64,000 nt of DNA, taken from NCBI GenBank assembly GCA_032622095.1, contig CP136066.1:103561319-103625318 (forward strand). The letters are read 5' to 3'. Source of the DNA: Siphonodentalium dalli. Its lineage: Eukaryota > Mollusca > Scaphopoda > Gadilida > Siphonodentaliidae. Positions 4,451 through 60,008 of this stretch are shown here, piece after piece. The first letter of the stretch is position 1; each line of letters begins with the position of its first letter. Position numbers and translations under genes: made by a program. Below the pieces are notes generated by a model, which saw only the letters and a list, made by a program, of their open reading frames with translations, made no database searches and was not told the origin of the DNA.

Positions 4451-5119
4451 GGTATATAATATGCATGTTAAAAATGTTTTTTCGACTGGCTATGTTATCA
4501 GACAGTCGTCGTTATCTGACTAACTTGTGGAAAATAACTTCAATAATAAATTCAACTTTGGTCTGCCCACTTATAGAATAAGTCAGATTCCTATGAGAAC
4601 TTGTGAATTAAAGATTTAATCGGTCTCAAAGGTGTTACATATATATAGGCACATGTATGTACACAAGAAGATATATATATACATACTTACGTTCAATTAT
4701 GTATACACATCTACGGATTCATGTTTTTTTTTATACTGATAGTATTTGACATTATAGTACATATACAGTAATGAAAAATTGTTCACCGAGAGTTCACAAG
4801 CTATTGTAAATAATATTTTTTACATAAATGAAGATTGGCATAAATTGACAAACATGAATATTAAATTAGCATTATATACAATGGAACCACAATGTGTGGT
4901 ACACAGCTACCTGAAAATAAGACATTTATAATACAATAATTTGACTCCTCATATATTCTCTATACCTGTATTTATAAGGTGATGATAATAAATAATTGAA
5001 TTGATGTTGGGTCTATTCAATCTGCTAAATCGGCTCACTGAGAAATGCACTTTACCGACCTAGCCACAGAGGGTCATCCCCTCCAGGTCACGGTGATATT
5101 TTCTTGATATATTCATCTA
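4451..5119 (-). other. Probable 3' untranslated / downstream region of the TMEM179-like gene
   Basis: The stop codon of the last exon is at 5120-5122 on the minus strand. No canonical AATAAA was identified with confidence just downstream on that strand, so the transcript end is not placed. The rest is AT-rich without other features. Confidence 0.35.
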
Positions 5120-10531: not shown

Positions 10532-11171
10532 TTTAAGGACATCATGACCACCGGGATTGATTGAATACAAATTTCTCTGTAGTTTAAAAGCCTCTCAGAG
10601 GTTGTCTTTGGTGCTGTTGTTATATCTGATTTAAATAAACTGAAACTTATCTTATCTTTGACATACTGTATTCCTTTTGGAATATAAAATGGGGTGGAAA
10701 AACACGCTCGTACAGTTTGGAAAATTGTCAATATTCAATAACAATGATATAATGATATACTTTAATACGGAAGCATGGAGTCGCCACATACAAAAATAAA
10801 TTCCACCCCTAAATCGGCGTATATATACGCCGACCATCGGCGTATATACGCCGAACATCGGCGTAAATACGCCGAACATCGGCGAAGTTATGCCAAATAC
10901 CGGCGCATATACGCCGATCATCAGCGTAACTATACGCAGATGGCGATGGTCACATATACATACTATCCGCCTTACCTCAAACCTGACCTTTAAAATATGC
11001 ATTTCTGATAATTAATTTCTGAGAGTCGTCTCTACCTTAGTCAATTGTGACTCAACCTATTTCAATATGATGAGATGCACTGAATAATATCAAAACAGGG
11101 GGTTGGAGACTGATACATTTGTATCAGGGGGCTGAAACATGAATTTCATAGATTTGGGAGCCGAAACCTGC
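10532..11171. repeat. Tandem segmental duplication, copy 1 (640 bp)
   Basis: It starts TTTAAGGACATCATGACCAC and runs to GAGCCGAAACCTGC. The same order of sequence is repeated at 11172-11789. Within it lies a self-complementary array (10813-10940). Confidence 0.75.
10813..10940. repeat. Array of 21-bp self-complementary units
   Basis: Units of the type ATCGGCGTATATACGCCGAAC repeat about six times with decay toward the right. TCGGCGTATATACGCCGA inside each unit is its own reverse complement, so each unit can form a small cruciform. A second array lies at 11439-11555. Confidence 0.8.
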
Positions 11172-11789
11172 TTTAAGGACACCATGCCCACCGGGATTGA
11201 TTGAATACAAATTTCGCTGTAGTTTAAAAGCCTCTCAGAGGTTGTGTTTGATGCTGTTGTTATATCTGATTTAAATAAACTGAAACTTATCTTTGACATA
11301 CTGTATTCCTTTTGGAATATAAAATGGGGTGGAAAAAACACGCTCGTATACAGTTTGGAAAATTGTCAATATTCAATAACAATGATATAATGATATACTT
11401 TAATAAGTCGCCAAATACAGAAATAAATTCCACCCCTAAATCGGCGTATATACGCCGACCATCGGCGTATATACGCCGAACATCGGCGTAAATACGCCGA
11501 ACATCGGCGTAGTTATGCCAAATATGGGCGCATATACAGCGTAACTATACGCCGATGGCGATGGTCACATATACATACTACCCGCCTTACCTCAAACCTG
11601 ACCTTTAAAATATGCATTTCTGATAATTAATTTCTGAGAGTCGTCTCTACCTTAGTCAATTGTGACTAAACCTATTTCAATATGATGAGATGCCCTGAAT
11701 AATATCAAAACAGGGGGTTGGAGACTAATACATTTGTATCAGGGGGCTGAAACACGAATTTCATAGATTTGGGAGCCGAAACCTGCTTT
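11172..11789. repeat. Tandem segmental duplication, copy 2
   Basis: Head-to-tail copy of 10532-11171 with few substitutions. The second 21-bp palindromic array (11439-11555) has fewer intact units than copy 1. Confidence 0.75.
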
Positions 11790-22125: not shown

Positions 22126-22804
22126 AAATTGAATATACATATATACATGGCCTCCTGTTCGTGAACATGGTCCCATACAGTGCCGCTTTCCCAGCTAATT
22201 GTGTATTTAATTATATTACAGTATTATCACTTTGAATTTGTTATCTTTAGTCGTGTGAGTTTTCCTATTTTATGTATTTCTATTATTTGAAACGTTTGTT
22301 GTAATTATGTATGATAATATTAATGTCTACCTCCAGTACCACAGATTTCTAGACGGAGATATTAAAAATTGAAATAGAGAAACGATGGCAATTTTTGTAC
22401 TTCGCACATGCACATATCTCACAGCGAACTTTTAATATGCAATCAACAAGAAGACCCTGCACAAATTAGGAATAAAATCAATTCAGTAAAAAATTTGACT
22501 GCATGGGCAAAGCCCATATTTGTGCTATTTTGGCGTGGGACTATGCCGTTTCGCTGGTAAAATAGCACACCGCACAGTTAACGTTCAAATGCGTCACTGC
22601 GAAGTAATATTACGTGATAAACGATTCGTTGTATCAAAATAAGTCAGTTTATACATACGCTGTGAATGAAAATAAAGATATCTTGATGTTTTCGTCGAAT
22701 GCAACCGATTTTTCGAGGTTTTTGTTTTTACGTCATTTCCATCTAAAATACATCAGTTGATTTGAAATGGCATAATTATCAATATTTCCGATGTCGTAAA
22801 GAGA
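22126..22804. other. Pre-insertion flank of the palindromic element
   Basis: AT-rich with a small hairpin (GTGCTATTTT...AAAATAGCAC at about 22522-22568). The last six bases, AAGAGA (22799-22804), are the left copy of the target-site duplication of the element that follows. Confidence 0.5.
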
Positions 22805-23110
22805 AGAAGAATAGGGGTCTCCTTACCGTCACATCTAAAAATAGAATCTTTGGGGTCTAAAATTGGTTGTGGGTGTCTCGTTCGCGTCACATCTAAAAAT
22901 AGAATCTTTGGGGTCTAAAATTGGTTGTACTAAAATATTCCCAAAATATCAAAAACCCAAAAATTATTTTTCCAAAAATTATTTTTTCCAAAAAATTTCA
23001 AAATCCCAAAAAATTTTAAAACCCCAAAATTTCAAAAAAGAAAAAAATTCAAAACCCTCAAAATTATTTCTCCAAAAAAAAAGTATAAATAAAAAATTTA
23101 TAACGAGTTT
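22805..23110. repeat. Left terminal segment with duplicated 'ATCTAAAAATAGAATCTTTG' motif
   Basis: The motif ATCTAAAAATAGAATCTTTG with GGGTCTAAAATTGGTTGT following occurs twice in tandem (about 22834 and 22891), then a C-, A-rich tract of 'CCCAAAAATT'-type. The same motif appears a third time near the centre (27670) in the same orientation, with mirror copies in the right arm. Confidence 0.85.
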
Positions 23111-24428
23111 TCGGTTTCTGATAATCTCGATATTAAAATGTCGAATGTTAAATTATTTGCGTGTAATATCTTTCGTTAATTTTTTTTTGTTCAAATATTT
23201 TTCATGAAATTATTAATCGATGTTTAGAAATAGCTTTTATTGGACATTGTGACCATCGATATGAATGCATACATTCCAGTGTTTTATCGGACGCAGTTCA
23301 TATAATTGTCATACCTGAAAATAGACACTATTACTTTTACATAAATAATAAAGAGCGTTTATTCTTTACACTCTCTCTATCCCATATGACAGGTGTGTAT
23401 TATCGTGAATTATTGGAAGTTTTGAGATGTACTATGTTCAATCCCTAACGGTCGAAAATTGTAATGTTAAATTACAACCCTCCAGAATGAATTGTCATAT
23501 TCGCTGTACACGCAATCACACGCGACATTGGTGGTAACAATGTGTCTTTCACACCTTTGCTTTACCAAATGAATTATATTATTTCCCCGGTCACAGTTAT
23601 ATGCTATTCAGAAAACATATCGATTTAATGTCTGAACAAACGAGTTAGTATCAATTAAGGTTGATAAACTGTGTCATTCACACGATAATTAGTTAGCCAA
23701 AAACATGCATACGTCCAGGACACTCAATTATAGAAATTGCTTTGATGACATTGTTATAACAACATTACGTAATAACCAATTATCGCCCCACATTCATACT
23801 TACGCTTTGGACATTTTATCAGTTTATCACGTGATCACTAAATGTGGCAATCGGGTATCCTCCGATGCCTGCAATATATTATTTATAATAATTGGACTCA
23901 TTGATCTCACGTGAATAATACTCTTAGTTGTTCCAATAAAATAGTTATCAAATTCGATCACCAATAGATTTGACTGTGGAATGTAATGACCTTTAACTTA
24001 TTTATCGATCTAAAGGGACACTCATTATGAATGAATGTTAACAATACAAACGCACGAATGAAGAGCGTTGAACATATACGAAATTACTACACGAATGAAT
24101 TGAACCTTGAAATTTATATTTCACATCTTACCAACAACAGCTACAGACATAATCATAGTATTATACTGTCTTGCATGTACACACGCTATGACATCATTAA
24201 AGGTGGACAATCCACTCAAGGTGTGGCAACAGCTACAGACATAATCATAGTATTATACTGTCTTGCATGTACACACGCTACGACATCATTAAAGGTGGAC
24301 AATCCACTCAAGGTGTGGCAACAGATACGGACATAGGCATAGTGTTATACAGTCTTCTATGTACCCACGCTATGACACCATTAACGTACATTGGATGTTA
24401 GGTATATGACTCTTGAGTATGCACCAAT
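23111..24428. repeat. Left-arm noncoding repeats
   Basis: The segment 23805-23985 (from TTGGACATTTTATCAGTTTA) recurs at 25311-25505. Modules of about 95 bp around GAAGAGCGTTGAACATATAC and GCTACAGACATAATCATAGT (24060-24360) recur two or three times in tandem, and again at 25680-26200. Open frames here (60-100 codons) are translated repeats and appear as mirror images in the right arm. Confidence 0.75.
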
Positions 24429-25036
24429 CAATGAGCAAATGAGCAAAAAACTGAGCAAATGAGCAAAAAATGAGCAAATGAGCAAGAAAATGAGCAAATG
24501 AGCAAGAAAATGAGCAAATGAGCAATAAAAATGAGCAAATGAGCATAAAAATGAGCAAATGAGCAAGAAAATGAGCAAATGAGCAATAAAAATGAGCAAA
24601 TGAGCATAAAAATGAGCAGATGAGCAAGAAAATGAGCAAATGAGCAAGAAAATGAGCAAATGAGCAATAAAAATGAGCAAATGAGCAAAAAAAATGAGCA
24701 AATGAGCAAGAAAATGAGCAAATGAGCAATAAAAATGAGCAAATGAGCAAATAAATGAGCAAATGAGCAATAAAAATGAGCAAATGAGCAAAAAAATGAG
24801 CAAATGAGCAAGAAAATGAGCAAATGAGCAATAAAAATGAGCAAATGAGCAAATAAATGAGCAAATGAGCAATAAAAATGAGCAAATGAGCAAAAAAATG
24901 AGCAAATGAGCAAGAAAATGAGCAAATGAGCAATAAAAATGAGCAAATGAGCAAATAAATGAGCAAATGAGCAAAACAATGAGCAATAAAATGAGCAAAT
25001 GAGCAATAAAAATGAGCAAATGAGCAAAAAAATGGG
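24429..25036. repeat. Minisatellite (left arm), unit about 20-21 bp
   Basis: Repeats of ATGAGCAAATGAGCAA plus AAAA, TAAAA or GAAAA. On the minus strand all three frames stay open and give Leu-Ile-Cys-Ser-Phe-type repeats of 198-266 codons. These are a by-product of a repeat without stop codons, not genes. The right-arm counterpart is shorter by about 13 bp net. Confidence 0.95.
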
Positions 25037-26333
25037 CATACCTGTATGCAGGCCTACCAGTGGATGAATAGTCTGTCGGAGAAGTACTGTGTAGACAGGT
25101 CTTGCCGGTAAGAGAGTCAGACGAGAAGTGAAGGCTCGGCTATTAAAACATAGTAATGCGATAGCGAACATCAAACGAGTCTGCGCACGCATATCTGTCA
25201 AAAGGATACAATAGCAGTCATTGGTCAATTTATCCCCGGTGTCATCTCAGTACCCAATCGGGACGAAGCCGAAGGTCAACTCATTTTTTTTGCTCATTAT
25301 AGTACGTCACTTGGACATTTTATCAGTTTATCACGTGATCACTAAATGTGGCAATCGGGTATCCACCGATGCCTGCAATTTATTATTTATAATAATTGGA
25401 CTCATTGATCTCACGTAAATAATACTCTTAGTTGTTCCAATAAAATAGTTATCAAATTCGATCACCAATAGATTTGACTGTGGAATATAATGACCTTTAA
25501 CTTATTTATCGATCTATGTTAAGACATGGTCTTAACAAAAAACTTGACCATAACAAAAATTACCTTACATTTATGCATGAATCTAATTAGACCATACGTA
25601 AATATTGTCAGCTTATCGTCTGATGAGCAAATCCGATGTTTATCAAAAATAGTACAACTTCCAGTTGGTAATTACTCTTACGAATGAAGAGCGTTGAACA
25701 TATACGAAATTACTACACGAATGAACTGAAATTTATATTTTCACATCTTACCAACAACAGATACAGACATAGTCATAGTGTTATACTATCTTACATGTAC
25801 CCATGCTATGACATCATTCGAAGGGGCAATACACTCAAGGAGTTAAAGTGACACGAAACAAGGGACGTGATGTAATATTGGTGTTTGAATCTTAAAGGAA
25901 CACAAGACACTCTAAAGGGACACTCATTATGAATGAATGTTAACAATACAAGCGCACGAATGAAGAGCGTTGAACATATACAAAATTACTACATGAATGA
26001 ATTGAACCTTGAAATTTATATTTCACATCTTACCAACAACAGCTACAGGCATTATCATAGGGTTATACTGTCTTGCATATACACACGCTATGACATCATT
26101 AAAGGCGGACAATCCACTCACGGTGTGACAACAGATACAGACATAGGCATAGTGTTATACAGTCTTCTATGTACCAATGCTATGACATAATTAAAGGGGG
26201 ATAATACACGCACGGTGTGGAATGTTAAAGTGACACGCGGTAAGGGACGTGATGTAATATTGGTGAAACCCCCTCCCCACTTATAGATATATAACGAAGA
26301 CGAGAATAACATGTTGATGAAGTTTATTGAAAT
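25037..26333. repeat. Left-arm second set of direct repeats
   Basis: A diverged copy of the outer modules lies inside the minisatellite, so each arm has the order repeat-minisatellite-repeat. No gene recognised. Confidence 0.7.
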
Positions 26334-26903
26334 TTAATCATTGTCTGAATCTTCGACCGTTAGATTTACTTCTAAGAGTTTCTTGAATTTTCTCATCGCT
26401 TCATCTGCAGCCCATTCATTATTATATCCGTGTTTGGTCAGTTTGGCCATTTTCTTCATGATCATGGTATGTATGCGTGATGTTTTCAATCGATACTGGT
26501 ATTCTATTAATCGTCTATAACTTTTGAGAAACAGAGCAAACTCTGTGTCGATGGTATCCTCTTTTCCCGACATGCTCTCATCTCCCGAAATGCTCTCTTC
26601 TTCTTTCACATCATTGGTGACGCGTTTCATCATACTTTTGAATGTGTCCATCTCGTTGACACATCGCGCAGCTTTCTTAAGACCGAATACCGTTCTACTA
26701 CCGACGCCATTACCATCTTCTGAATCTGATAGCGTTCCACGTTCATCTTCATCTGAATCTAGAACCGCTTCGTCAGATTCATCGGTATCTTCTCCGAAGA
26801 GAGTTGGTTTTGTCTCAGACATAACTCCGTGTTTAATCTGTTTATGTCTTTGTAGATTGTAGTTCGTCGATAAAATAATGCCACATAAATCACACCCGTG
26901 CAT
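26334..26903 (-). CDS. C2H2 zinc-finger acidic protein (left-arm copy)
   Basis: 189 codons. Residues 4-24 form one C2H2 finger with spacing C-x2-C-x12-H-x4-H, in the context STNYNLQRHKQIKHG. The middle is acidic and Ser-rich (about residues 37-65 and 100-118) and the C-terminal third is Lys/Arg-rich and probably helical. An AATAAA signal begins six bases after the stop (minus strand, 26323-26328) and a TATAAGAG box lies about 35 bp before the ATG (about 26931-26938). The protein is identical in length to the right-arm copy. Family not recognised by name. A DNA-binding role in element expression or genome binding is inference. Confidence 0.72.
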   Translation of the reverse strand: MHGCDLCGIILSTNYNLQRHKQIKHGVMSETKPTLFGEDTDESDEAVLDSDEDERGTLSDSEDGNGVGSRTVFGLKKAARCVNEMDTFKSMMKRVTNDVKEEESISGDESMSGKEDTIDTEFALFLKSYRRLIEYQYRLKTSRIHTMIMKKMAKLTKHGYNNEWAADEAMRKFKKLLEVNLTVEDSDND

Positions 26904-27084
26904 TATCGCGAATTATTGGAAGAACCATCACTCTTATAAGTAGCGATAAAAAGAGAGAATAAGGTGTGGTATACAACCGTCGCTCTAAGAGTACGTTCGT
27001 CCCGGTGCTAGGGTATAGATATTTGACCGCCGGTGATTCAATTAATGCCAATTTATCAGTATGGTACTCTATGTATTCATTCAT
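26890..27084 (-). CDS. Small hypothetical protein, 64 aa (left-arm copy)
   Basis: Conserved in both arms without change and overlapping the start of the zinc-finger gene by 14 bp. It contains an acidic N-terminus (MNEYIEYHTDKLALIESPAV), a YLYPSTGTNVLLERRL segment, and a hydrophobic C-terminal stretch (SLFLSLLIRVMVLPII) that could be a membrane helix. Its C-terminal part also covers the TATA-like box of the next gene, so it may be partly or wholly noncoding. Function unknown. Confidence 0.45.
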   Translation of the reverse strand: MNEYIEYHTDKLALIESPAVKYLYPSTGTNVLLERRLYTTPYSLFLSLLIRVMVLPIIRDNARV

Positions 27085-27142
27085 GATTTGGCTAATCGTA
27101 TGACACTGATCTTTTCATTTTCTTCTTATTATTAGACAAACC

Positions 27143-27415
27143 TCAATCAGACACTCTCTTGTTGGTTTGTTTGGACGCTTTACGTGTGTTTGTCAACTTA
27201 TTTGCTGCAACTTCAGCCTTAGCCATTTCAATCGCTTGAGCGATGGGTGTCACCACGTTAATAAGTGGTTTTAGAACGTCTTCTTCACTATCACTAGTTT
27301 TAGTTCTGTCAATAAAGTATCGACCCTGATTATCTGGTATTAACTTCCCATCAACCATATCTCTGAAATGTTTTCTCCACATTTCAAGATCTGCTGGAAT
27401 ATATGGGATCGACAT
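27143..27415 (-). CDS. Hypothetical basic Polinton-type protein (left-arm copy, truncated by a nonsense change)
   Basis: 90 codons beginning MSIPYIPADLEMWRKHFRDM, with a central acidic linker and a C-terminal Lys/Asn-rich tail. The right-arm copy (28459-28782) continues for 17 more residues including a KKKMKR basic cluster. Here a single base difference makes a GGA Gly codon read TGA, giving an early stop and loss of the basic tail. A second difference changes Val to Asp at residue 22. A short protein starting with a hydrophobic-Pro and W-x-x-HF signature and ending in a basic tail would suit a small nucleic-acid-associated protein, but that is inference. A TATAAGAGG box lies 68 bp before the ATG. 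Confidence 0.65.
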   Translation of the reverse strand: MSIPYIPADLEMWRKHFRDMVDGKLIPDNQGRYFIDRTKTSDSEEDVLKPLINVVTPIAQAIEMAKAEVAANKLTNTRKASKQTNKRVSD

Positions 27416-27596
27416 GTTTCTTCAAAATGTACAAGTCACTCTTTTTTCTGCATTTTATTTTAGAAAGTTTATCGCCTCTTATAAAAATCGATTATTGGCC
27501 ATGAATGCCAAATGCACCATGATAGTTATCGATGTCAATAATGCGTTTCGTTGAGATCTTGATTGAGTATGCACCAATCAATGAGCAAATAAATGA
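27416..27596 (-). promoter_or_regulatory. Promoter region of left-arm genes, with TATAAGAGGC box
   Basis: On the minus strand TATAAGAGGC (about 27474-27483) precedes the 27143-27415 gene by 68 bp. The mirror copy is at 28391-28400. A TATAAGAGTG box precedes the zinc-finger gene as well. The box call is based on sequence resemblance and position only. Confidence 0.4.
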
Positions 27597-28277
27597 GCAA
27601 GCAGGATGTTATGTCGCTTGGTGGCGGAGGTAGCATCACCAAATTACCCTCGGGGGACCTCATTCTGCCATCTAAAAATAGAATCTTTGGGTCTAAAATT
27701 GGTTGTACTAAAATATTCCCAAAAACCCAAAACTTAAAAAATTTCAAAAAACTTAAAAAATTTCAAAAAATTTCAAAAACTTCAAAAATTTTCAAAAATT
27801 TCAAAAACTTCAAAAATTTCAAAAAACTTCAAAAATTTCAAAAACTTCAAAAATAAGACCCCTGCGGCGGCGGCGGCATTGCGGTATTTTACTGCGGCGC
27901 AGCCGCCGGCGGCGGACCCCGGCGGCGGCGGCGGAGGCACCGCCGCCGCAGTAAAATACCGGCGGCACCGCCGCCGCAGTAAAATACCGCAATGCCGCCG
28001 CCGCCGCCGCCAGGGTCTTATTTTTGAAGTTTTTGAAATTTTTGAAGTTTTTTGAAATTTTTGAAGTTTTTGAAATTTTTGAAAATTTTTGAAGTTTTTG
28101 AAATTTTTTGAAATTTTTGAAGTTTTTTGAAATTTTTGAAGTTTTGGGTTTTTGGGAATATTTTAGTACAACCAATTTTAGACCCAAAGATTCTATTTTT
28201 AGATGGCAGAATGAGGTCCCCCGAGGGTAATTTGGTGATGCTACCTCCGCCACCAAGCGACATAACATCCTGCTTGC
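27597..28277. repeat. Central palindrome with (TTTCAAAAA)n arms and GC-rich hairpin core
   Basis: The left side has ATCTAAAAATAGAATCTTTG at 27670, then tandem 'TTCAAAAA/CTTCAAAAA' units (27730-27852), then a nearly all-GC block (27860-28013) built of GGC/GCC triplets and two kinds of inverted copies of GCGGTATTTTACTGCGGC. The right side mirrors it. The turn of the palindrome is near 27937. The open frames across it in either direction (87-149 codons, Lys-Asn-Phe repeats or poly-Ala/Arg) are mirror products of the repeat and are not called as genes. Confidence 0.85.
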
Positions 28278-28390
28278 TCATTTATTTGCTCATTGATTGG
28301 TGCATACTCAATCAAGATCTCAACGAAACGCATTATTGACATCGATAACTATCATGGTGCATTTGGCATTCATGGCCAATAATCGATTTT

Positions 28391-28400
28391 TATAAGAGGC
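28391..28400 (+). promoter_or_regulatory. TATAAGAGGC box, right arm
   Basis: TATA-like box 68 bp upstream of the ATG at 28459, and a similar TATAAGAGTG at 28936-28945, 35 bp before the zinc-finger ATG. Predicted from position and shared sequence only. Confidence 0.4.
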
Positions 28401-28458
28401 GATAAACTTTCTAAAATAAAATGCAGAAAAAAGAGTGACTTGTACATTTTGAAGAAAC

Positions 28459-28782
28459 ATGTCGATCCCATATATTCCAGCAGATCTTGAAATGTGGAGA
28501 AAACATTTCAGAGATATGGTTGTTGGGAAGTTAATACCAGATAATCAGGGTCGATACTTTATTGACAGAACTAAAACTAGTGATAGTGAAGAAGACGTTC
28601 TAAAACCACTTATTAACGTGGTGACACCCATCGCTCAAGCGATTGAAATGGCTAAGGCTGAAGTTGCAGCAAATAAGTTGACAAACACACGTAAAGCGTC
28701 CAAACAAACCAACAAGAGAGTGTCTGATGGAGGTTTGTCTAATAATAAGAAGAAAATGAAAAGATCAGTGTCATACGATTAG
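28459..28782 (+). CDS. Hypothetical basic Polinton-type protein (right-arm copy, longer)
   Basis: 107 codons. N-terminus MSIPYIPADLEMWRKHFRDM, a short GRYFIDRTKTSDSEED acidic segment, a predicted helix rich in Ala and Glu (about residues 50-75), and a C-terminal run of Lys, Asn and Arg with KKKMKR. This is the intact version of the 27143-27415 gene. I recall short proteins with a similar start in Polinton-like elements of invertebrates but cannot confirm this without a search. The gene starts a run of three same-strand frames (28459, 28790, 28971) separated by 7 bp or overlapping. Confidence 0.68.
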   Translation: MSIPYIPADLEMWRKHFRDMVVGKLIPDNQGRYFIDRTKTSDSEEDVLKPLINVVTPIAQAIEMAKAEVAANKLTNTRKASKQTNKRVSDGGLSNNKKKMKRSVSYD

Positions 28783-28789
28783 CCAAATC

Positions 28790-28984
28790 ATGAATGAATA
28801 CATAGAGTACCATACTGATAAATTGGCATTAATTGAATCACCGGCGGTCAAATATCTATACCCTAGCACCGGGACGAACGTACTCTTAGAGCGACGGTTG
28901 TATACCACACCTTATTCTCTCTTTTTATCGCTACTTATAAGAGTGATGGTTCTTCCAATAATTCGCGATAATGCACGGGTGTGA
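28790..28984 (+). CDS. Small hypothetical protein, 64 aa (right-arm copy)
   Basis: Starts 7 bp after the stop of the preceding gene and overlaps the zinc-finger gene by 14 bp. Identical to the left-arm copy. No family recognised. Confidence 0.45.
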   Translation: MNEYIEYHTDKLALIESPAVKYLYPSTGTNVLLERRLYTTPYSLFLSLLIRVMVLPIIRDNARV

Positions 28985-29540
28985 TTTATGTGGCATTATT
29001 TTATCGACGAACTACAATCTACAAAGACATAAACAGATTAAACACGGAGTTATGTCTGAGACAAAACCAACTCTCTTCGGAGAAGATACCGATGAATCTG
29101 ACGAAGCGGTTCTAGATTCAGATGAAGATGAACGTGGAACGCTATCAGATTCAGAAGATGGTAATGGCGTCGGTAGTAGAACGGTATTCGGTCTTAAGAA
29201 AGCTGCGCGATGTGTCAACGAGATGGACACATTCAAAAGTATGATGAAACGCGTCACCAATGATGTGAAAGAAGAAGAGAGCATTTCGGGAGATGAGAGC
29301 ATGTCGGGAAAAGAGGATACCATCGACACAGAGTTTGCTCTGTTTCTCAAAAGTTATAGACGATTAATAGAATACCAGTATCGATTGAAAACATCACGCA
29401 TACATACCATGATCATGAAGAAAATGGCCAAACTGACCAAACACGGATATAATAATGAATGGGCTGCAGATGAAGCGATGAGAAAATTCAAGAAACTCTT
29501 AGAAGTAAATCTAACGGTCGAAGATTCAGACAATGATTAA
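28971..29540 (+). CDS. C2H2 zinc-finger acidic protein (right-arm copy)
   Basis: 189 codons, same protein as 26334-26903. One N-terminal C2H2 finger (Cys4, Cys7, His20, His25 by approximate count), Asp/Glu/Ser-rich middle, basic helical C-terminus ending in an acidic DSDND tail. AATAAA begins at 29546, six bases after the stop, giving a very compact 3' end like that of viral or Polinton genes. Both copies being open while other regions have drifted suggests recent duplication or selection. Confidence 0.72.
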   Translation: MHGCDLCGIILSTNYNLQRHKQIKHGVMSETKPTLFGEDTDESDEAVLDSDEDERGTLSDSEDGNGVGSRTVFGLKKAARCVNEMDTFKSMMKRVTNDVKEEESISGDESMSGKEDTIDTEFALFLKSYRRLIEYQYRLKTSRIHTMIMKKMAKLTKHGYNNEWAADEAMRKFKKLLEVNLTVEDSDND

Positions 29541-29545
29541 ATTTC

Positions 29546-29551
29546 AATAAA
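29546..29551 (+). terminator. Polyadenylation signal AATAAA of zinc-finger gene
   Basis: Canonical hexamer six bases after the TAA stop. The mirror copy is at 26323-26328 on the minus strand. Confidence 0.65.
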
Positions 29552-30835
29552 CTTCATCAACATGTTATTCTCGTCTTCGTTATATATCTATAAGTGGGGA
29601 GGGGGTTTCACCAATATTACATCACGTCCCTTACCGCGTGTCACTTTAACATTCCACACCGTGCGTGTATTATCCCCCTTTAATTATGTCATAGCATTGG
29701 TACATAGAAGACTGTATAACACTATGCCTATGTCTGTATCTGTTGTCACACCGTGAGTGGATTGTCCGCCTTTAATGATGTCATAGCGTGTGTATATGCA
29801 AGACAGTATAACCCTATGATAATGCCTGTAGCTGTTGTTGGTAAGATGTGAAATATAAATTTCAAGGTTCAATTCATTCATGTAGTAATTTTGTATATGT
29901 TCAACGCTCTTCATTCGTGCGCTTGTATTGTTAACATTCATTCATAATGAGTGTCCCTTTAGAGTGTCTTGTGTTCCTTTAAGATTCAAACACCAATATT
30001 ACATCACGTCCCTTGTTTCGTGTCACTTTAACTCCTTGAGTGTATTGCCCCTTCGAATGATGTCATAGCATGGGTACATGTAAGATAGTATAACACTATG
30101 ACTATGTCTGTATCTGTTGTTGGTAAGATGTGAAAATATAAATTTCAGTTCATTCGTGTAGTAATTTCGTATATGTTCAACGCTCTTCATTCGTAAGAGT
30201 AATTACCAACTGGAAGTTGTACTATTTTTGATAAACATCGGATTTGCTCATCAGACGATAAGCTGACAATATTTACGTATGGTCTAATTAGATTCATGCA
30301 TAAATGTAAGGTAATTTTTGTTATGGTCAAGTTTTTTGTTAAGACCATGTCTTAACATAGATCGATAAATAAGTTAAAGGTCATTATATTCCACAGTCAA
30401 ATCTATTGGTGATCGAATTTGATAACTATTTTATTGGAACAACTAAGAGTATTATTTACGTGAGATCAATGAGTCCAATTATTATAAATAATAAATTGCA
30501 GGCATCGGTGGATACCCGATTGCCACATTTAGTGATCACGTGATAAACTGATAAAATGTCCAAGTGACGTACTATAATGAGCAAAAAAAATGAGTTGACC
30601 TTCGGCTTCGTCCCGATTGGGTACTGAGATGACACCGGGGATAAATTGACCAATGACTGCTATTGTATCCTTTTGACAGATATGCGTGCGCAGACTCGTT
30701 TGATGTTCGCTATCGCATTACTATGTTTTAATAGCCGAGCCTTCACTTCTCGTCTGACTCTCTTACCGGCAAGACCTGTCTACACAGTACTTCTCCGACA
30801 GACTATTCATCCACTGGTAGGCCTGCATACAGGTA
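29552..30835. repeat. Right-arm inner direct repeats
   Basis: Mirror image of 25037-26333. Same repeat modules, no gene recognised. Confidence 0.75.
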
Positions 30836-31434
30836 TGCCCATTTTTTTGCTCATTTGCTCATTTTTATTGCTCATTTGCTCATTTTATTGCTCATTGTTT
30901 TGCTCATTTGCTCATTTATTTGCTCATTTGCTCATTTTTATTGCTCATTTGCTCATTTTCTTGCTCATTTGCTCATTTTTTTGCTCATTTGCTCATTTTT
31001 ATTGCTCATTTGCTCATTTATTTGCTCATTTGCTCATTTTTATTGCTCATTTGCTCATTTTCTTGCTCATTTGCTCATTTTTTTGCTCATTTGCTCATTT
31101 TTATTGCTCATTTGCTCATTTATTTGCTCATTTGCTCATTTTTATTGCTCATTTGCTCATTTTCTTGCTCATTTGCTCATTTATTTGCTCATTTGCTCAT
31201 TTTTATTGCTCATTTGCTCATTTGCTCATTTTCTTGCTCATCTGCTCATTTTTATGCTCATTTGCTCATTTTTATTGCTCATTTGCTCATTTTCTTGCTC
31301 ATTTGCTCATTTTTATGCTCATTTGCTCATTTTTATTGCTCATTTGCTCATTTTCTTGCTCATTTGCTCATTTTCTTGCTCATTTGCTCATTTTTTGCTC
31401 ATTTGCTCAGTTTTTTGCTCATTTGCTCATTGAT
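30836..31434. repeat. Minisatellite (right arm)
   Basis: Reverse complement of the 24429-25036 array, with a rearranged number and order of units. Frames of 190-281 codons through it are repeat translation. Confidence 0.95.
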
Positions 31435-33058
31435 TGGTGCATACTCAAGAGTCATATACCTAACATCCAATGTACGTTAATGGTGTCATAGCGTGGGTAC
31501 ATAGAAGACTGTATAACACTATGCCTATGTCCGTATCTGTTGCCACACCTTGAGTGGATTGTCCACCTTTAATGATGTCATAGCGTGTGTACATGCAAGA
31601 CAGTATAATACTATGATTATGTCTGTAGCTGTTGCCACACCTTGAGTGGATTGTCCACCTTTAATGATGTCATAGCGTGTGTACATGCAAGACAGTATAA
31701 TACTATGATTATGTCTGTAGCTGTTGTTGGTAAGATGTGAAATATAAATTTCAAGGTTCAATTCATTCTTGTAGTAATTTCGTATATGTTCAACGCTCTT
31801 CATTCGTGCGTTTGTATTGTTAACATTCATTCATAATGAGTGTCCCTTTAGATCGATAAATAAGTTAAAGGTCATTACATTCCACAGTCAAATCTATTGG
31901 TGATCGAATTTGATAACTATTTTATTGGAACAACTAAGAGTATTATTCACGTGAGATCAATGAGTCCAATTATTATAAATAATATATTGCAGGCATCGGA
32001 GGATACCCGATTGCCACATTTAGTGATCACGTGATAAACTGATAAAATGTCCAAAGCGTAAGTATGAATGTGGGGCGATAATTGGTTATTACGTAATGTT
32101 GTTATAACAATGTCATCAAAGCAATTTCTATAATTGAGTGTCCTGGACGTATGCATGTTTTTGGCTAACTAATTATCGTGTGAATGACACAGTTTATCAA
32201 CCTTAATTGATACTAACTCGTTTGTTCAGACATTAAATCGATATGTTTTCTGAATAGCATATAACTGTGACCGGGGAAATAATATAATTCATTTGGTAAA
32301 GCAAAGGTGTGAAAGACACATTGTTACCACCAATGTCGCGTGTGATTGCGTGTACAGCGAATATGACAATTCATTCTGGAGGGTTGTAATTTCACATTAC
32401 AATTTTCGACCGTTAGGGATTGAACATAGTACATCTCAAAACTTCCAATAATTCACGATAATACACACCTGTCATATGGGATAGAGAGAGTGTAAAGAAT
32501 AAACGCTCTTTATTATTTATGTAAAAGTAATAGTGTCTATTTTCAGGTATGACAATTATATGAACTGCGTCCGATAAAACACTGGAATGTATGCATTCAT
32601 ATCGATGGTCACAATGTCCAATAAAAGCTATTTCTAAACATCGATTAATAATTTCATGAAAAATATTTGAACAAAAAAAAAATAACGAAAGATATTACAC
32701 GCAAATAATTTAACATTCGACATTTTAATATCGAGATTATCAGAAACCGAAAACTCGTTATAAATTTTTTATTTATACTTTTTTTTTGGAGAAATAATTT
32801 TGAGGGTTTTGAATTTTTTTCCTTTTTTGAAATTTTGGGGTTTTAAATTTTTTTGGGATTTTGAAATTTTTTGGAAAAAATAATTTTTGGAAAAAATAAT
32901 TTTTGGGTTTTTGATATTTTGGGAATATTTTAGTACAACCAATTTTAGACCCCAAAGATTCTATTTTTAGATGTGACGCGAACGAGACACCCACAACCAA
33001 TTTTAGACCCCAAAGATTCTATTTTTAGATGTGACGGTAAGGAGACCCCTATTCTTCT
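31435..33058. repeat. Right-arm outer repeats and terminal segment
   Basis: Mirror image of 22805-24428, ending ACCCCTATTCTTCT at 33058 followed by the AAGAGA duplication. Confidence 0.85.
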
Positions 33059-33064
33059 AAGAGA

Positions 33065-33213: not shown

Positions 33214-35488
33214 GGTCCGAATCGGCTTATCTGGTTTAGACTAGGTTTTATTCTAGACCAGGTTTTACTCTAGTTTAAACTAGGTTTAAGTAGGAGTATG
33301 GTTTTACTGTAGTAAAACTAGGTTTTATGGGAGTAAAACTGGGTTTTTAGTGTAGTTAAATCCAGTTTTGTGATAAACTCAGTTTTAGTTTGTGGAATTC
33401 GATCTCAAATAAAACTAGGTTTTATTGACGTGATAAAGTTATGGTAATATTACTAATTGTTTGTGGTGAATTGGCTATATAATCATCAGTATAAGCTTCT
33501 GTATATATGATTTATACGTACCATACGTCTCGTCTCGAAAATATACCTTTAAATATACTTTGAAAAAACATCAAAGTTAAACCACCCTACCCCAGGTTTT
33601 ACTAAAACCTAGTTTTGTGGGTTTAATTATTCGGTCGATATTTTTCGCCCAGTATTGATGTTATTTCTTCGCGTATATGGGAGTGTTTATTTTGAATTGG
33701 GGGAGGCGTTTATGCTTGAGCGTTTGTCACTCAATGTTCATGCAGGAGAGTCTTAGTGGAATTCGGGGAGGCGATGTCGGTATACTTATGAGATAAATTC
33801 TAACAAAATATGTGCCAGTGTGATGGATGATTTCTTGCTATATATGTTTGTTTGCAATTCGCTCGTTCGGATGTCGCTTTGCCGAGCATGGAGGGATCGG
33901 ACGGATCAGTTTGACACGTTAGACACGAACATGACTTTTGAAGCTGATTCCTTATTCACAAAAAGGTCTCTTGCGGTCAATTTGACGCATGGGTTGGTGG
34001 CCCGCCCAAATACCCATCAGAGACACCCCAGCCCTCACCCGGGGGAGGGTAACCACCACCCTGAGGTGGAATGGAGTATGGGCCATTTTGGAGAACTGTA
34101 AGGATTTCGGCCAATTTGATGGTATGGGTGGGTGGTCCGCCCCAAATAACCGATAGAAACACCCCACCCCTCACATCCGGGGGGGGGGGTGGGGTGAACA
34201 TGGGATATGGACAATTTTCGAGACCGGTAATGATTTCTGCCAATTTGACGGCATGGATGGATAGCCCGCTCAAATGTCCCATAGAAACAGCCCACCCCTC
34301 AACCCTGGGGGAACCACCCCAGGAGGTAAAAATGGGGTATTGACCATTTTCGAGAACGGTAAGGATTTTGGTCAATTTGACGTCAGGAGTGGGTAGCCCG
34401 CTCCAACTATACCCCCTAGAAGCAACCTCACCCGGGGGTACCAGTACCACCCCGAGGGGGGGAATGGGGTATGGACCATTTTCGAGAACGGTGGGTGGCA
34501 CACCCAAATGTCCCCCTAGAAACACCCCAACCCGCACCCGGTCCATACCCTATTTTCACCCGCTCGGGTAGAACCACCCGCGGTGAGGGTGGGGGTGTTT
34601 CTATGCACTATATTTGAGGGCGGGCCGCCCACCAATGCCGTCATATTGGCCGAAATCCTTACCGTTCTCGATAACGGTCCATACCCCATTCCGACACCCG
34701 GGTGAGGGTGGTGTGTTTCTATGGGGTATTTGGGGCGGGCCACCTACACATGCATGCCGTAATATTGACCGACAGAGGCATGTTTTTTTGCGAATAAGGC
34801 AAAAAATGATCTATAACCAATTTTCACCCATGAGGGTGGTACCCTCCAGGGATGAGGGTAGGGTGTTTCTAGGGGATATTTGGAGCGGGCCACACACCCT
34901 GTCGTCAAATTGGCAGAAATCCTTACCGTTCTCGAACATCGTCCGGATTTGAGGGGTGGGTGTTTATGGGGGTTATTTGAGGTACCCTTCCCCGGGGTGA
35001 GGGCTGGGGTGTTTCTATTCGGTATGTGGGCGTACCCCATTTCCACCTCCTCGGGTGGCACCCCCGGGTGAGGGGTGGGTGGGGGGGGGGGGGTTATGGT
35101 GTATTTTGATCATGTCCACCCACTCCTGCTGCCAAATTAAGTAGCCTAAATCCTTACCGTTCTCGAAAATGGTCCATACCCCAGTTCTTCCGGGGTGAGG
35201 GGTGATGTTTTTTGGGCGGGCCACCCATTCATGCCGTCAAATTCGCCGAAATCCTTCCCGTTCTCGAAAATGGTCCATACCCCATTTTCACCCGTCCGGA
35301 TGGTACCCCCGGGGATGGATGGTGGTGTTTCTATGGGGTATTTGTGGCGGGCCCCCACCCATGCCCTCAAGAGATATTTTTGAGTTCCGAAAGTCATGTT
35401 CGTCCATGATATTAGATAATATCTAACCGCTATACAACAGACCGTGCATTCGTCGTGATTTCTCAAAGCGCACGGGTTATTCGCCTGA
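33214..35488. mobile_element. TIR element copy A with head-to-head minisatellite body
   Basis: It starts GGTCCGAATCGG-CTTATCTGGTTTAGAC at 33214, followed by alternating TAAACTAGGTTTTA / AAAACTAGGTTTTA motifs (33230-33430). After about 33940 come GC-rich units of about 110-135 bp containing CCATTTTCGAGAACGGTAAG and GGATTTCGGCCAATTTGACG in plus orientation to about 34510, and the same unit reversed from about 34620. It is the reverse complement of copy B (57677-60008) from 33214 to about 35488. The homology then stops, so its second terminus is missing. Frames of 60-189 codons through the array are translated repeat. Confidence 0.8.
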
Positions 35489-49029: not shown

Positions 49030-49911
49030 TGTGCCGAATGACCCCAAAATGACTCGTTTCCCATTTACATGTCAATGGTAACATTCATGACAAATTTCAT
49101 GATGATCCGACCAAAGATACGACATGTAGCCTGTGTCAAAGGATTTAGTCATACAAAGGGTAAAATCCAAGATGGCCATGTTGGATGCCATCTTGTTTCG
49201 TGACTACGCGCCCACATTTTTTCGTGTTAACATTGCTTAATAGTTGAGGGATATAATATGGAAGAACATAATTGGGTGAAGTTAAGTCCTGTGGTGTGGG
49301 GTGTAGGGGTACCCTGTCAGCTTCCAGAAAATTATATTTGTTTTTTTCATTGCCGTCACGTGACATTTTGATCTCCGGTGATGTCATCAATGACAAAATC
49401 ATAAATGTTTTTCTTTCACTGGATAGAGTATTCCAATACCTACAAATTGGCACATCACATGTTAAAATCCAATCACTTATATGGGATACCGTTTCCCCCA
49501 CCCCATCATAATCGGAAAATGTAGCTCAACTTTGCGAAGAAGTTAAATTTTTGTGATGAAAAATAAATGGAATGATGAATTGAATTTTGAAATCAAAGAT
49601 GGCCGCTGGCGTCATTGCCGAATGACCACAAAATGACTCGTTCCCATCTACATGTCAATGTTATCATCGATGCAAAATTTCATGATTATCCGACAAAGGT
49701 ATGACATGTAGCCAGCGCCGAAGGATTTAGTCATACAAAGAGTAAAATCCAAGATGGCTGTCGGCGGCCATGATTTATGGCCGAATGAACCCAAAATGAT
49801 TCATTCCCATCTACATGTCAATGTCAACAGCCATGACAAATTTCATAATGATCCGAGCAAAGGTATGACCTGTAGCCCGTGTCGAAGGATTTAGTCATGC
49901 AAAGAGATTTA
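49030..49911. repeat. Three diverged interspersed modules of about 140 bp
   Basis: CCAAAATGACTCGTTYCCAT, CATGATNATCCGACAAAG and GGATTTAGTCATACAAAGNG recur at about 49040-49175, 49620-49760 and 49785-49910. Between the first two lies unique sequence (49180-49600) with minus/plus frames of 79-118 codons that show no domain. Confidence 0.6.
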
Positions 49912-51225
49912 GGAACATACCCATTTTCTATGATGGACCCTTAAAATTGTGAACCCCAAATTTGAGCCCGTGCAGTGTAAACCTAAGTGAACTTTTCCCG
50001 GTCATGTCCAGATGCAGGACGGTCCAGATATGTCTCAATATCCATATTATATGCCCAGAATCCAAAGATATAGGCACATACCCATTTTTTATGATTGCCC
50101 TTAAAATGGTGAACCCAAAATTTGAGCCCGTGCAGTGTAAACCTAAACCAACTATACATCAGTCATGTCCAGATGCAGGACGGTCCAGATATGTCCCACC
50201 ATCCATATTATATGCCAGAATCCAAAGGTATAGGCACATAACAATTTTCTATGATGGACCCTTAAAATGGTGAACCTCAAATTTGAGCCCATGCAGTTTA
50301 AACCTAAGTAAACTATACATGAGTCATGTCCAGATGCAGTACGGTCCAGGTATGTCCCAACATCCATATCATATGCCAGAATCCAAAGATATAGGCACAT
50401 AACAATTTTCTACGAAGGGCCCTTCAAATTGTGAACCCCAAATTTGAGCCGTGCAGTTTAAACCTAAGTAAACTATTCCCGGTCATGTCCAGATGCAGGA
50501 CGGTCCAGATATGTCTCAATATCCATATTATATGCCCAGAATCCAAAGATATAGGCACATACCCATTTTTTATGATTGCCCTTAAAATGGTGAACCCAAA
50601 ATTTGAGCCCGTGCAGTGTAAACCTAAACCAACTATACCTCAGTCATGTCCAGATGCAGGACGGTCCAGATATGTCCCACCATCCATATTATATGCCAGA
50701 ATCCAAAGGTATAGGCACATAACAATTTTCTATGACGGACCCTTAAAATGGTGAACCTCAAATTTGAGCCCATGCAGTTTAAACCTAAGTAAACTATACA
50801 TGAGTCATGTCCAGATGCAGTACGGTCCAGGTATGTCCCAACATCCATATCATATGCCAGAATCCAAAGATATAGGCACATAACAATTTTCTACGAAGGG
50901 CCCTTCAAATTGTGAACCCCAAATTGAGCCGGTGCAGTTTAAGCCTAAGTAAACTATTCATGAGTCATGTCCAAATGCAGGACGGTCCAGATATGTCCCA
51001 ACATCCATATCATATGCCAGAATCCAAAGATATAGGCACATAACAATTTTCTATGATGGGCCCTTCAAATTGTGAACCCCAAATTTGAGCCGGTGCAGTT
51101 TAAACCTAAGTAAACTATTCATGAGTCATGTCCAGATACAGGACGGTCCAGATATGTCCCAACATCCATATTATATGCCATAATCCAAAGATATAGGCAC
51201 ATAAAAAATTTCTATGATGGGCAGG
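49912..51225. repeat. Satellite array, about 160-bp unit with 480-bp higher-order period
   Basis: Eight head-to-tail units, each with ATAGGCACATA, TTTTCTATGATGGACCCTTA, AATTTGAGCCC, CATGTCCAGATGCAGGACGG and TATATGCCAGAATCCAAAG. Units at 49962-50430 and 50443-50910 are much more alike in blocks of three than between neighbours, so the array spread as a trimer. The 103- and 107-codon frames are products of the repeat. Confidence 0.9.
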
Positions 51226-53931: not shown

Positions 53932-54194
53932 CATGGGTAGATTATGCTGCCACACATCTTTGGAATGCAAATCTGGCGATATTTTTTGAAAATTTCAAAA
54001 TGTTCAGGTTGCAATTCGCATTAATTCCGATGATTCTGTTCAGGTTCAGAAACAATTTTCGTTCAGGTTCGAACAATTTTCGTTCAGGTTCGGACAATTT
54101 TCGTTCAGGTTCGGACGCATCAGAACCTCACCGAGAAGCGAAATGCCCAGCTGCAGTCGCGCTGTTATTGTGTTTGTTGCTTGCTCCGCGTGTA

Positions 54195-55610: not shown

Positions 55611-56352
55611 GTATGTAATATGGCAATGTAATTTCATTCCCAACTAGCTGGCGTATAGCCGACATTGCTCGAGATTATTGGCAACAATATTTAACTGTGG
55701 CTTTTGTCCCACTCATTCGGAGAAATTACCACCTATATTTGGAAATTTCAGCTGACATCTTTAGATATAACAAAGCGTGTTCGTAAGCAACACGCGCAAT
55801 AACAGCGCGGCTACAGCTAGGCACTTCGCTTCTTGGTGAGGTTTTGATGCGTTTGAACTTGAACAAAAATTGTCCGAACCTGAACGAAAATTGTTTCTGA
55901 ACCTGAACAAAATCATCGGAAATATTGCGAATCTGAACCTGAACATTTTGAAATTTTCAAAGGTCGTTTTTCGGAGTTAGACAATAAAAATATCGCCGGT
56001 TTTGCATTCCGAAGATGTGTGGTAGCCTAATCTGCCCAGGACAATACATAAATTTGCGGATCCATGAGCCCATGGCCAAAATATTACGAAAAAGCGAACA
56101 TTTCGCCGCCTCGATAAAATTTCGAAAATTTATGACGACTTGACACGCCAAATACAACATTTCGCATGCCTGTCATGCGAAAGGCATGTTACATGGGTGT
56201 TGGGCATACAAATTCCTACATAACTGTTTAAAGGTGTATCACCGAAAGATGTCGTTAATTGATGCTTGAAGACAATATATTAACTTACCGTTTATCCTGT
56301 CCACTGGGCGCCGCCATCGTGAAACATCTAAACGGGTATCCGACAGTGATAA

Positions 56353-57676: not shown

Positions 57677-60008
57677 GGTCCGAATCGGCATCTCCAGTTT
57701 AGACCTGGTTTAAACTACCAGTTTAAACTGGGTTTTAGTAGTAAAACCAAGTTTTTCTCCACCGCTGGGACGAAATAGATTTGGTCGATTGCGTCACCTA
57801 TGGTCCACACTTGTCCAATTGCAAGGATAGGAGGCGTGGTCTGTCTGTTTATTATCTTTACTTGTCAATGCATTGTCGGTCACGCGACCTTTTGTCGCTA
57901 TCTAATCTTCTAGTCAGGCGAATAACCCGTGCGCTTTGAGAAATAACGACGAAAGCACGGTCTGTTGAATAGCGGTTAGATATTATCTAATATCATGGAC
58001 GAACATGACTTTCGGAACTCAAACATATCTCTTGAGGGCATGGGTGGGGGCCCGCCACAAATACCCCATAGAAACACCACCATCCCTCCCCCGGAAGTAC
58101 CACCCGGACGGGTGAAAATGGGGTATGGACCATTTTCGAGAACGGGAAGGATTTCGGCGAATTTGACGGCATGAATCGGTGGCCCGCCCAAAATACCCGA
58201 TAGAAACATCGCCCCTCACCCCGGGAGAACTGGGGTATGGTAAGGATTTAGGCTAATTAATTTGGCAGCAGGAGTGGGTGGCCCGATCAAAATACACCAT
58301 AGAACCCCCCACCACCCATCCCTCACCCGGGGGGAGGGGGTGCCACCGAGGTGGAAATGGGGTACGCCCAAATACCGAATAGAAACACCCCAGCCCTCAA
58401 CCCCGGGGAAGGGTACCTCAAATAACCCCCGTAAACACCCCACCCCTCACATCCGGACTATGTTCGAGAACGATAAGGATTTCGGCCAATTTGACGACAG
58501 GGGTGTGTGGCCCGCTCCAATATCCCCTAGAAACACCCTCATCCCTGGAGGATACCACCCTGATGGGTGAAAATGGGGTATGGAGCATTTTATTCCTTAT
58601 TCGCAAAAACATGCCTCTGTCGGTAAATATTACGGCATGTATAGGTGGCCCGTCCCAAATACCACATAGAAACACAGTCAAACACCCCACCATCACCCGG
58701 GTGTCAGAAAGCGGTATGGACCGTTATCGAGACCGGTAAGGATTTCGGTCAATATGACGGCATTGGTGGGCCATCAAATATAGTTCATAGAAACACCCCC
58801 ACCCTCACCGCGGGTATGGACCCGGGGTGCGGGTTGGGGGTATTTCTAGGGGGGGGCACTTGGGGTGTGACAACCACCGTTCTCGAAAATAGTCCATACC
58901 CCATTTTCACCCAGGGTTGAGGGGTGGGCTGTTTTCTATGGGAAATTTGAGCGGGCCATCCATCCATGCCGTCAAATCGGCCATAAATCCTTACCGGTCT
59001 CGAAAATGGCCCATATCCCATGTCCACCCCCGGATGTGAGGGGTGGGGTGTTTCTATGGGTTATTTGGGGCGGGCCACCCACCCAAACCATCAAATTGGC
59101 CGAAATCCTTACAGTTCTCCAAAATGGTCCATACTCCATTCCCCCTCAGGGTGGTCGTTACCCTCCCCGGTGAGGCACTGGGGGCTGGGGTGTCTCTGCT
59201 GGGTATTTAGGCGGGCCACCAACCCAAGCGTCAAATTGACAGAAAGAGACCTTTTGTGAATAAGGAATCAGTTTCAAAAGTTATGTTCGTGTCTAACGTG
59301 TCAAACTGATCAGTCCGATCCACCCATGCTCTCAGTCGCCAAAGCGACATCCGAACGAGCGAATTGCAAACAAACATATATAGCAAGAAATCATCCATCA
59401 CACTGGCACATATTTTGTTAGAATTTATCTCATAAGTAACGACATCGCCTCCCCGAATTCCACTAAGACTCTCCTGCATGTACATTGAGTGACAAACGCC
59501 CAAGCACAAACGCCTCCTCCAATTCAAAATAAACACTCCCATATACGTGAAGAAACAACATCAATACTGGGCGAAAAAAATCGACCGAATAATTAAACCC
59601 ACAAAACTAGATTTTAGTAAAACCTGGGGTAGGGTGGTTTAACTTTGATGTTTTTTCCAAGTATATTTAATGGTATATTTTTGAGACGAGAAGTATGGTA
59701 CCTATAAATCATATATACATAAGCTTATACTGATGATTATATAGCCAATTCACCACAAATAATTAGTAATATTACCATAACTTTATCACGTCAATAAAAC
59801 CTAGTTTCAATTGAGATCGAATTCCACAAACTTAAACTGAGTTTATCACGAAACTGGGTTTAACTACACTAAAACCCAGTTTTACTCCCATAAACCTAGT
59901 TTAACTACAGTAAAACCAAGTTTAAATCCTACTTAAACCTAGTTTAAACTGGAGTTAAACCTGGTCTAGAATAAAACCTAGTCTAAACCAGAGATGCCGA
60001 TTCGGACC
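57677..60008. mobile_element. TIR element copy B, complete, with head-to-head minisatellite body
   Basis: 2332 bp between GGTCCGAATCGGCATCTCCA and ...GAGATGCCGATTCGGACC. TAAACNAGGTTTTA-like motifs follow both termini. The body has units with CCATTTTCGAGAACGG in plus orientation (58110-58760) and reversed units (58880-59130). It is the inverted copy of element A. No target duplication is visible. The plus and minus frames through the array are repeat translation. No transposase was recognised, so it is probably non-autonomous. Confidence 0.82.

What the first reader, a model, noticed from the sequence alone, without database searches (positions are those of the whole stretch)
22799..33064. A Polinton-class element that is a single 10.25-kb palindrome
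The entire body is an inverted repeat with a turn at about 27937, so each arm (5.1 kb) equals a very long terminal inverted repeat. Known Polintons have TIRs of some hundred to about a thousand bases around a unique core with polymerase, integrase and capsid genes. Here the unique core is missing and each strand carries the same three small genes. This may be a fold-back, non-autonomous Polinton derivative or a distinct lineage replicating through a hairpin-ended or dimeric intermediate. I do not know of a described equivalent.
Basis: partly seen in the sequence, partly recalled or inferred. Interest (0 to 1): 0.93.

Follow-up and report, generated by a model that had tools for sequence, protein, structure and literature searches.

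The report
Palindromic Polinton satellites with hairpin turn

Summary
Window 22805-33058 is a 10,254-bp palindrome, arms 99.7% identical over 5,108 aligned positions, inside a 6-bp target duplication (AAGAGA). It belongs to a family in its own unnamed 2.23-Gb genome. Its outer 1 kb is shared (91-96%) with two long copies carrying PolB and an rve integrase, so these are Polinton ends. Three arm types with different inner genes exist, mostly doubled symmetrically, turning at one GC-rich module. The module core has 241 sites (control 0); 12 of 12 sites tested, not tied to known copies, are palindromic around it. The two ends of one copy differ by 0.29% on average, ends of different copies by 1.19% (0 of 20,000 shuffles); 3 of 13 copies are exceptions. 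Best reading: non-autonomous, helper-dependent Polinton satellites whose palindrome is maintained by fold-back (hairpin) replication. Palindrome, Polinton ends, shared turn and coupled arms are shown; helper supply and fold-back are inferred. Ten literature searches (listings; passages of four papers) showed no description of such a family.

The parts
22799..22804 (.). target site duplication, left (AAGAGA)
33059..33064 (.). target site duplication, right (AAGAGA)
22805..27930 (+). left arm of the palindrome
27937..33058 (-). right arm of the palindrome
22805..23804 (+). outer 1.0 kb of the left arm, shared (91-96%) with the ends of the two long PolB/integrase copies
32059..33058 (-). outer 1.0 kb of the right arm, same as above
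22814..22928 (+). two subterminal repeats of about 58 bp (a degenerate third, 65%, at 27651-27707)
32935..33049 (-). the same subterminal repeats in the right arm
24430..25038 (+). tandem array, 20/41/61-nt unit, left arm
30836..31431 (-). tandem array, right arm, slightly shorter
26334..26903 (-). 189-aa ORF with one weak C2H2 finger (under Pfam cut-off), left arm
28971..29540 (+). the same 189-aa ORF, right arm
28459..28782 (+). 107-aa ORF; its counterpart lies directly upstream of a 421-aa ORF in both long copies
27143..27415 (-). the same ORF in the left arm, ends at 90 aa
27861..28012 (.). GC-rich turn, predicted stem with two side arms (15 and 25 nt here); module shared between arm types

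Best explanation
A non-autonomous, palindromic satellite of a Polinton/Maverick. Shown: it bears the ends of a co-resident Polinton, sits in a 6-bp target duplication, has many relatives in its genome, and turns at a GC-rich hairpin module shared by different arm types; the two arms of most copies are more alike than arms of different copies. Inferred: PolB and integrase come in trans from the long copies. Protein-primed synthesis starts at the shared end and runs to the turn; the displaced or nascent strand folds back on the hairpin and copies itself, giving a molecule whose two arms come from one template; the unfolded double-stranded form is what integrates. The free form would be a half-length duplex with one protein-capped Polinton end and one closed, branched hairpin end, or its palindromic dimer. 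This resets the arms to identity in each cycle; after insertion they drift apart like the LTRs of a retroelement.
For: Facing pairs of the same ends in one genome; outer 1 kb 91-96% identical to the ends of two long copies with PolB PF03175 2e-49, rve 6e-15 with chromodomain, PC4, and, under the Pfam cut-offs, an AAA/A32-like ATPase and an adenovirus-protease-like ORF (6e-4). A PolB piece matches 40 of 40 scored places (235 candidates) at 98-100%. 6-bp duplications: 15 of 16 exact, 1 offset by 3 nt. Ends within a copy differ by 0.29%, between copies 1.19%, 0 of 20,000 shuffles; 8 of 13 palindromic copies closest to themselves (the window by less than the printed rounding), 2 tied or one-sided, 3 not. 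In the tree 7 of 13 pairs are starred sisters and 1 more is identical (its bootstrap had not fully settled). Inner arms: 27 substitutions private to both arms of a copy, 50 to one arm, 1 where one arm shares its state with another copy. Three arm types with different inner genes, one turn module; 241 core sites, control 0; 12 of 12 sites that were not tied to known copies are palindromic around it. Of 30 neighbouring pairs of inner-arm matches 29 face each other. The window's turn folds at -98 kcal/mol, z -15; two side arms of 19-28 nt in 15 of 22 centres and 10 of 12 more.
Against: No reads, no free DNA, no enzyme test. Arm-to-arm gene conversion in the chromosome could also keep arms alike. 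L022, L029 and L033 are not closest to themselves; the two ends of L022 match the two ends of the long copy L025/L026 (0.31% and 0.0%). GC triplet repeats fold well whatever their function, no fold control beyond dinucleotide shuffles of one centre was run, and no compensatory changes were tested; the 12 sites were picked by a motif that contains one of the side arms. In one search, 7 of 22 centres lack two arms of 19-28 nt, the window's own among them. Several copies are rearranged or asymmetric (L029, L035, L061) and several ORFs are broken (window left 107-aa ORF; C2H2 ORF in L021, L033 and one arm each of L032 and L039; the long P3 ORF in L027).
Confidence: 0.65

Rival explanations
1. Ordinary non-autonomous Polinton derivative: palindromes arose a few times by deletion and inverted duplication and are now replicated as any linear Polinton; arms are kept alike by panhandle pairing of the displaced strand plus mismatch repair. 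The hairpin is a passive scar.
For: Panhandle pairing of terminal repeats is the recalled model for adenovirus-like replicons; the two ends of the long copies are also alike (0.74% apart in L025/26, 2.5% in L037/38).
Against: Does not say why arm types with different inner genes keep one turn module.
Confidence: 0.22
2. Chromosomal arm-to-arm gene conversion after insertion keeps the arms alike, as in palindromes of sex chromosomes (recalled).
For: Would also give private changes shared by both arms (27).
Against: 50 private changes sit in one arm only; the ends differ by 0.5-0.8% in L022, L029 and L033 and by 2.5% in the long copy L037/38, so conversion does not keep up everywhere.
Confidence: 0.1
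3. Assembly artefact from fold-back reads.
For: Fold-back reads can produce palindromes (recalled).
Against: 6-bp duplications outside the ends in 15 of 16 copies, and offset by 3 nt in the 16th; arms differ by single substitutions; the structure recurs at many loci.
Confidence: 0.02

Closest known systems
Polinton/Maverick elements (polintoviruses)
   Same: Ends AG...CT (recalled rule), 6-bp duplication, outer 1 kb shared with copies that have PolB and rve integrase and weaker matches for a packaging-type ATPase and an adenovirus-type protease. PMC6431247 (passages read) states protein-primed PolB and DDE integrase for the class.
   Different: No PolB or integrase of its own, no unique core, whole body palindromic.
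Foldback-like elements and Galileo 2-TIR copies (PMC3573991, passages read)
   Same: Non-autonomous copies made mostly of two long inverted repeats with internal tandem repeats; the same paper says in passing that expansion of inverted repeats was reported for Polintons.
   Different: P-superfamily elements, longest TIR 1.26 kb there; no conserved branched turn mentioned in the passages read.
Self-complementary AAV genomes and parvovirus dimer forms (recalled)
   Same: A palindromic genome with a branched GC-rich hairpin at its centre.
   Different: No parvovirus protein in the Pfam scans of four arm ORFs; the ends are Polinton ends.
Palindromic defective genomes of protein-primed replicons: adenovirus 12 SYREC, pGKL1 derivatives (recalled; one search returned no paper for the first, and no paper was read for either)
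   Same: A protein-primed linear replicon reduced to two inverted copies of one end.
   Different: As recalled, by-products of culture, not a genome-resident family with its own genes and a shared turn.
pELF1 linear plasmid (PMC6863802, passages read)
   Same: One hairpin end and one end presumed to carry a terminal protein: the topology proposed here for the free half-length form.
   Different: A 143-kb enterococcal plasmid; no homology claimed.
Bidnaviridae (PMC4061559, passages read)
   Same: Polinton PolB and inverted terminal repeats combined with a parvovirus ancestry.
   Different: Their repeats are stated not to form parvovirus-type hairpins; independent viruses.

Membership tests
Polinton/Maverick | 6-bp target duplication | tested here: met
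   15 of 16 copies exact, 1 offset by 3 nt
Polinton/Maverick | Ends beginning AG and ending CT (recalled rule), inverted | tested here: met
   AGAAGAATAGGGG at both ends of the window element
Polinton/Maverick | Ends shared with an element that encodes PolB and integrase | tested here: met
   Outer 1.0 kb 91-96% identical to two long copies; PF03175, PF00665
Polinton/Maverick | Own PolB and retroviral-type integrase | tested here: not met
   No such ORF in the window element: a derivative, not an autonomous member
Polinton/Maverick | Protein-primed replication | not testable with these tools
   Inferred from the PolB type of the long copies
Foldback-like elements | Made mostly of long inverted repeats with internal tandem repeats | tested here: met
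   a descriptive class that says nothing of descent
Parvovirus-like hairpin replicon | Branched terminal hairpin | tested here: inconclusive
   Predicted in 15 of 22 and 10 of 12 centres; no covariation test
Parvovirus-like hairpin replicon | Rep/NS1 endonuclease | tested here: not met
   Not among the Pfam matches of four arm ORFs

The most novel reading that the evidence does not exclude
A natural class of self-complementary satellites: elements that keep a Polinton end for protein-primed start and integration (one arm type carries its own A32-like ATPase joined to zinc fingers, which hints at packaging), and a parvovirus-like branched hairpin as the other end, so that each cycle copies one arm into both. 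It would combine two modes of linear DNA replication in one genome-resident lineage.
Probability: 0.45. Interest if true: 0.92.

Novelty: new variant of a known kind. Interest (0 to 1): 0.8.

Why it matters
Protein-primed replication of Polintons through a single strand is a suggestion (so put in PMC4061559, passages read). A family whose two arms are reset to near identity in each cycle would record the replication mode in the genome itself and gives testable predictions on free DNA forms. It also suggests that Polintons can have gene-bearing satellites of their own.

Tried and rejected
Assembly artefact: rejected on duplications, arm differences and recurrence. A distinct autonomous palindromic lineage: no PolB or integrase in the arms. 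L021 (7.4 kb, 0.84-kb inverted repeat) as the ancestor of the palindrome: its sequence matches type P2 to just past the turn and then jumps to arm position 842 of the other side, so it reads better as a deletion of a palindrome. Orientation of the asymmetric turn as flip-flop evidence: rejected, because a symmetric element has no other orientation. The third 'gene' of each arm: no support. Relatives in viral contigs: none with three proteins or two exact DNA patterns. PHROGs gave matches for the PolB only, of five proteins; a PDB sequence search with the 421-aa ORF gave nothing, so 'capsid' for it is recalled and positional. Selection: 107-aa ORF against its counterpart dN 0.165, dS 0.41-0.44, Fisher p 0.006; C2H2 ORF between P1 and P2 dN 0.085, dS 0.152, p 0.07, not significant. 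In one search the self-comparison printed nothing for any of the 12 sites, probably because I gave one option twice; it was run again properly. The genome count of the P2 inner arm did not complete. Host not identified. Literature: searches (44 papers hold both 'Polinton' and 'palindrom', 30 listed; none), 45, 46, 47, 57, 64, 80, 88: titles and starts of abstracts seen, plus passages of four papers; none shows a palindromic Polinton family, but the bodies of the others were not read, and Repbase and most subscription papers are not in the library.
Full report
What is there. Window 22805-33058 is one 10,254-bp inverted repeat. Of 5,108 aligned arm positions 5,093 are identical; 10 of 15 mismatches lie outside the turn. 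The body stops at AAGAGA on both sides, and the flanks are not alike.

A family. The outer 496 bp gave 45 matches (40 of 1,866 candidates scored, a lower bound); 32 of them form 16 facing pairs 7-19 kb apart. I fetched 17 other copies, two of them with one end only (L021-L040). Thirteen palindromic copies with both ends (the window included), two long copies and L021 make 16 with both ends; 15 show an exact 6-bp duplication at the terminus, and L024 has CTTAAC after 3 extra nt (AGA) at its left end (last point read by eye). Five copies align to their own reverse complement from end to end in one piece (window, L027, L032, L034, L036); the others are palindromic with gaps, rearrangements or extra tandem copies. 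L021 has only a 0.84-kb inverted repeat.

Whose ends. Two long copies, 16.2 and 19 kb (L025/L026, L037/L038), share the outer 1.0 kb (91-96% to the window). L025/L026 has PolB (PF03175, 2.1e-49), an rve integrase with chromodomain and a PC4-like ORF; its ATPase has only weak Pfam matches under the cut-offs but is 31% identical to the ATPase of arm type P3. Both long copies have an adenovirus-endoprotease-like ORF just under the cut-off. A PolB piece matches 40 of 40 scored places (235 candidates) at 98-100%. So the ends are those of a recently multiplied Polinton, and the palindromes lack its enzymes.

Arm types. P1 (window, L022, L024, L028, L029, L030/31, L032, L040) carries a C2H2 ORF and the 107-aa ORF; in the first frame found, five of the eight other P1 loci tested (L022, L028, L029, L030, L040) give the full 107 aa, L024 ends differently, L032 and L031 gave none. 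P2 (L023, L033, L034, L039, and L021 in part) has a 200-aa form of the C2H2 ORF, open in L023, L034 and one arm of L039, broken in L033 and L021. P3 (L027, L036) shares the outer arm and a further 0.8 kb; in L036 it has a 567-aa ORF with a C2H2 finger (under cut-off), an A32-like ATPase (Pox_A32 4.7e-5, just above cut-off) and a second finger region, broken in L027; its last third is about 22% identical to the window's C2H2 ORF. L035 is rearranged. The 107-aa ORF has an 83%-identical DNA counterpart in both long copies, next to a 421-aa ORF; dN 0.165, dS 0.41 (Fisher p 0.006) suggest that it is kept for a function.

One turn. Centres of all three types hold the same GC-rich module. Its core with at most one mismatch occurs at 241 sites, reversed control 0; only the first sites were listed. 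I took 12 of the listed sites that were not tied to copies placed before: 12 of 12 have arms in facing orientation, 11 of 12 the same arm stretch on both sides (L061 differs), and 12 of 12 are self-inverted around the module. The window's turn folds at -98.3 kcal/mol against -50.9 for shuffles. Of 22 centres cut out by hand 15 fold with two side arms of 19-28 nt; the window has 15 and 25, and L022, L027, L028, L046, L049 and L051 lack the pattern. Of the 12 further sites 10 show it (not L055 and L061), but they were picked by a motif that contains one side arm. Not folded: L029 and L035 (turn changed), L048 and L050 (no complete turn in the 501 bases fetched), L021. The four long-copy pieces have none of six short words of the module.

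Arms kept alike. In the outer 980 bp the two ends of a palindromic copy differ by 0.29% on average and ends of different copies by 1.19%; 0 of 20,000 shuffles reach the observed mean. Eight of 13 copies are closest to themselves (the window only beyond the second decimal), L027 and L035 are one-sided or tied, L022, L029 and L033 are not. In the tree 7 of 13 pairs are starred sisters and L028 is an identical pair. L022 tells against a simple story: its ends match the two different ends of the long copy L025/L026 (0.31% and 0.0%), so ends seem to be exchanged between palindromes and long copies. In the inner arms 27 substitutions are private to both arms of one copy (P1 16, P2 4, P3 comparison 7), 50 to one arm (25, 9, 16), 47 are the same in both arms and shared with other copies, and in 1 case one arm alone shares its state with another copy; the P3 inner piece rests on two copies only. 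So arms change together before insertion and apart after it.

Mechanism. Shown: ends, duplications, symmetry, one turn, coupled arms. Stated for the class (PMC6431247, passages): protein-primed PolB and DDE integrase. Inferred: helper supply in trans, start at the shared end, fold-back at the turn, integration of the unfolded palindrome. The main rival is plain panhandle pairing with repair, which needs no role for the hairpin but leaves unexplained why different arm types share one turn. Chromosomal conversion is weakened by the arms that have drifted apart.

Copy number. Inner-arm searches are capped at 40 scored matches: P1 40 of 1,609 candidates, P3 40 of 1,300. Of 30 neighbouring pairs in these lists 29 face each other (12 of 13 for P1, 17 of 17 for P3; 20 matches stood alone). 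The 241 turn sites are the best estimate of scale; turns that differ by more than one base are missed, and one element can hold more than one.

Novelty. The ten searches named in Tried and rejected showed no palindromic Polinton family, at the depth stated there. Galileo 2-TIR copies show that such forms are known in another class, and that paper mentions inverted-repeat expansion in Polintons; scAAV, SYREC and pGKL derivatives are recalled precedents for the form. Hence 'new variant of a known kind', with the hairpin-replicating satellite as the bolder reading.

Noticed in passing
L024 left end (G000:C6:16529789): Three extra nucleotides (AGA) between the 6-bp duplication and the usual terminus; the terminus is AGA-repetitive, as expected if a protein-primed start slips.
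   Followed up: partly
L030/L031 (G000:C9:150282449-150300161): A 17.7-kb palindromic copy whose right side holds extra tandem copies of a 3.6-kb arm unit.
   Followed up: no
L058 (G000:C2:47141424-47142424): A turn flanked by arms that mix P1 and P3 stretches: perhaps a further arm type.
   Followed up: no
L049 and L051: Turns with symmetric GTT/AAC microsatellite inserts on both sides of the module.
   Followed up: no
L025:7801-8050 and L038:1201-1400: GC-rich CCCCTCCCCAGGGCGGGCGGG-like minisatellite inside both long copies; holds none of the six turn words tested.
   Followed up: no
window 10813-10937, 11440-11537 and 54038-54113, 55855-55912: Pairs of short arrays whose 21-22-nt units look like inverted repeats.
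   Followed up: no
window 49905-51220: Tandem array with a 161-bp unit, about 8 copies.
   Followed up: no
window 33974-34406 and 58876-59139: Two arrays whose units of about 120-130 nt look related, the first just outside the element.
   Followed up: no
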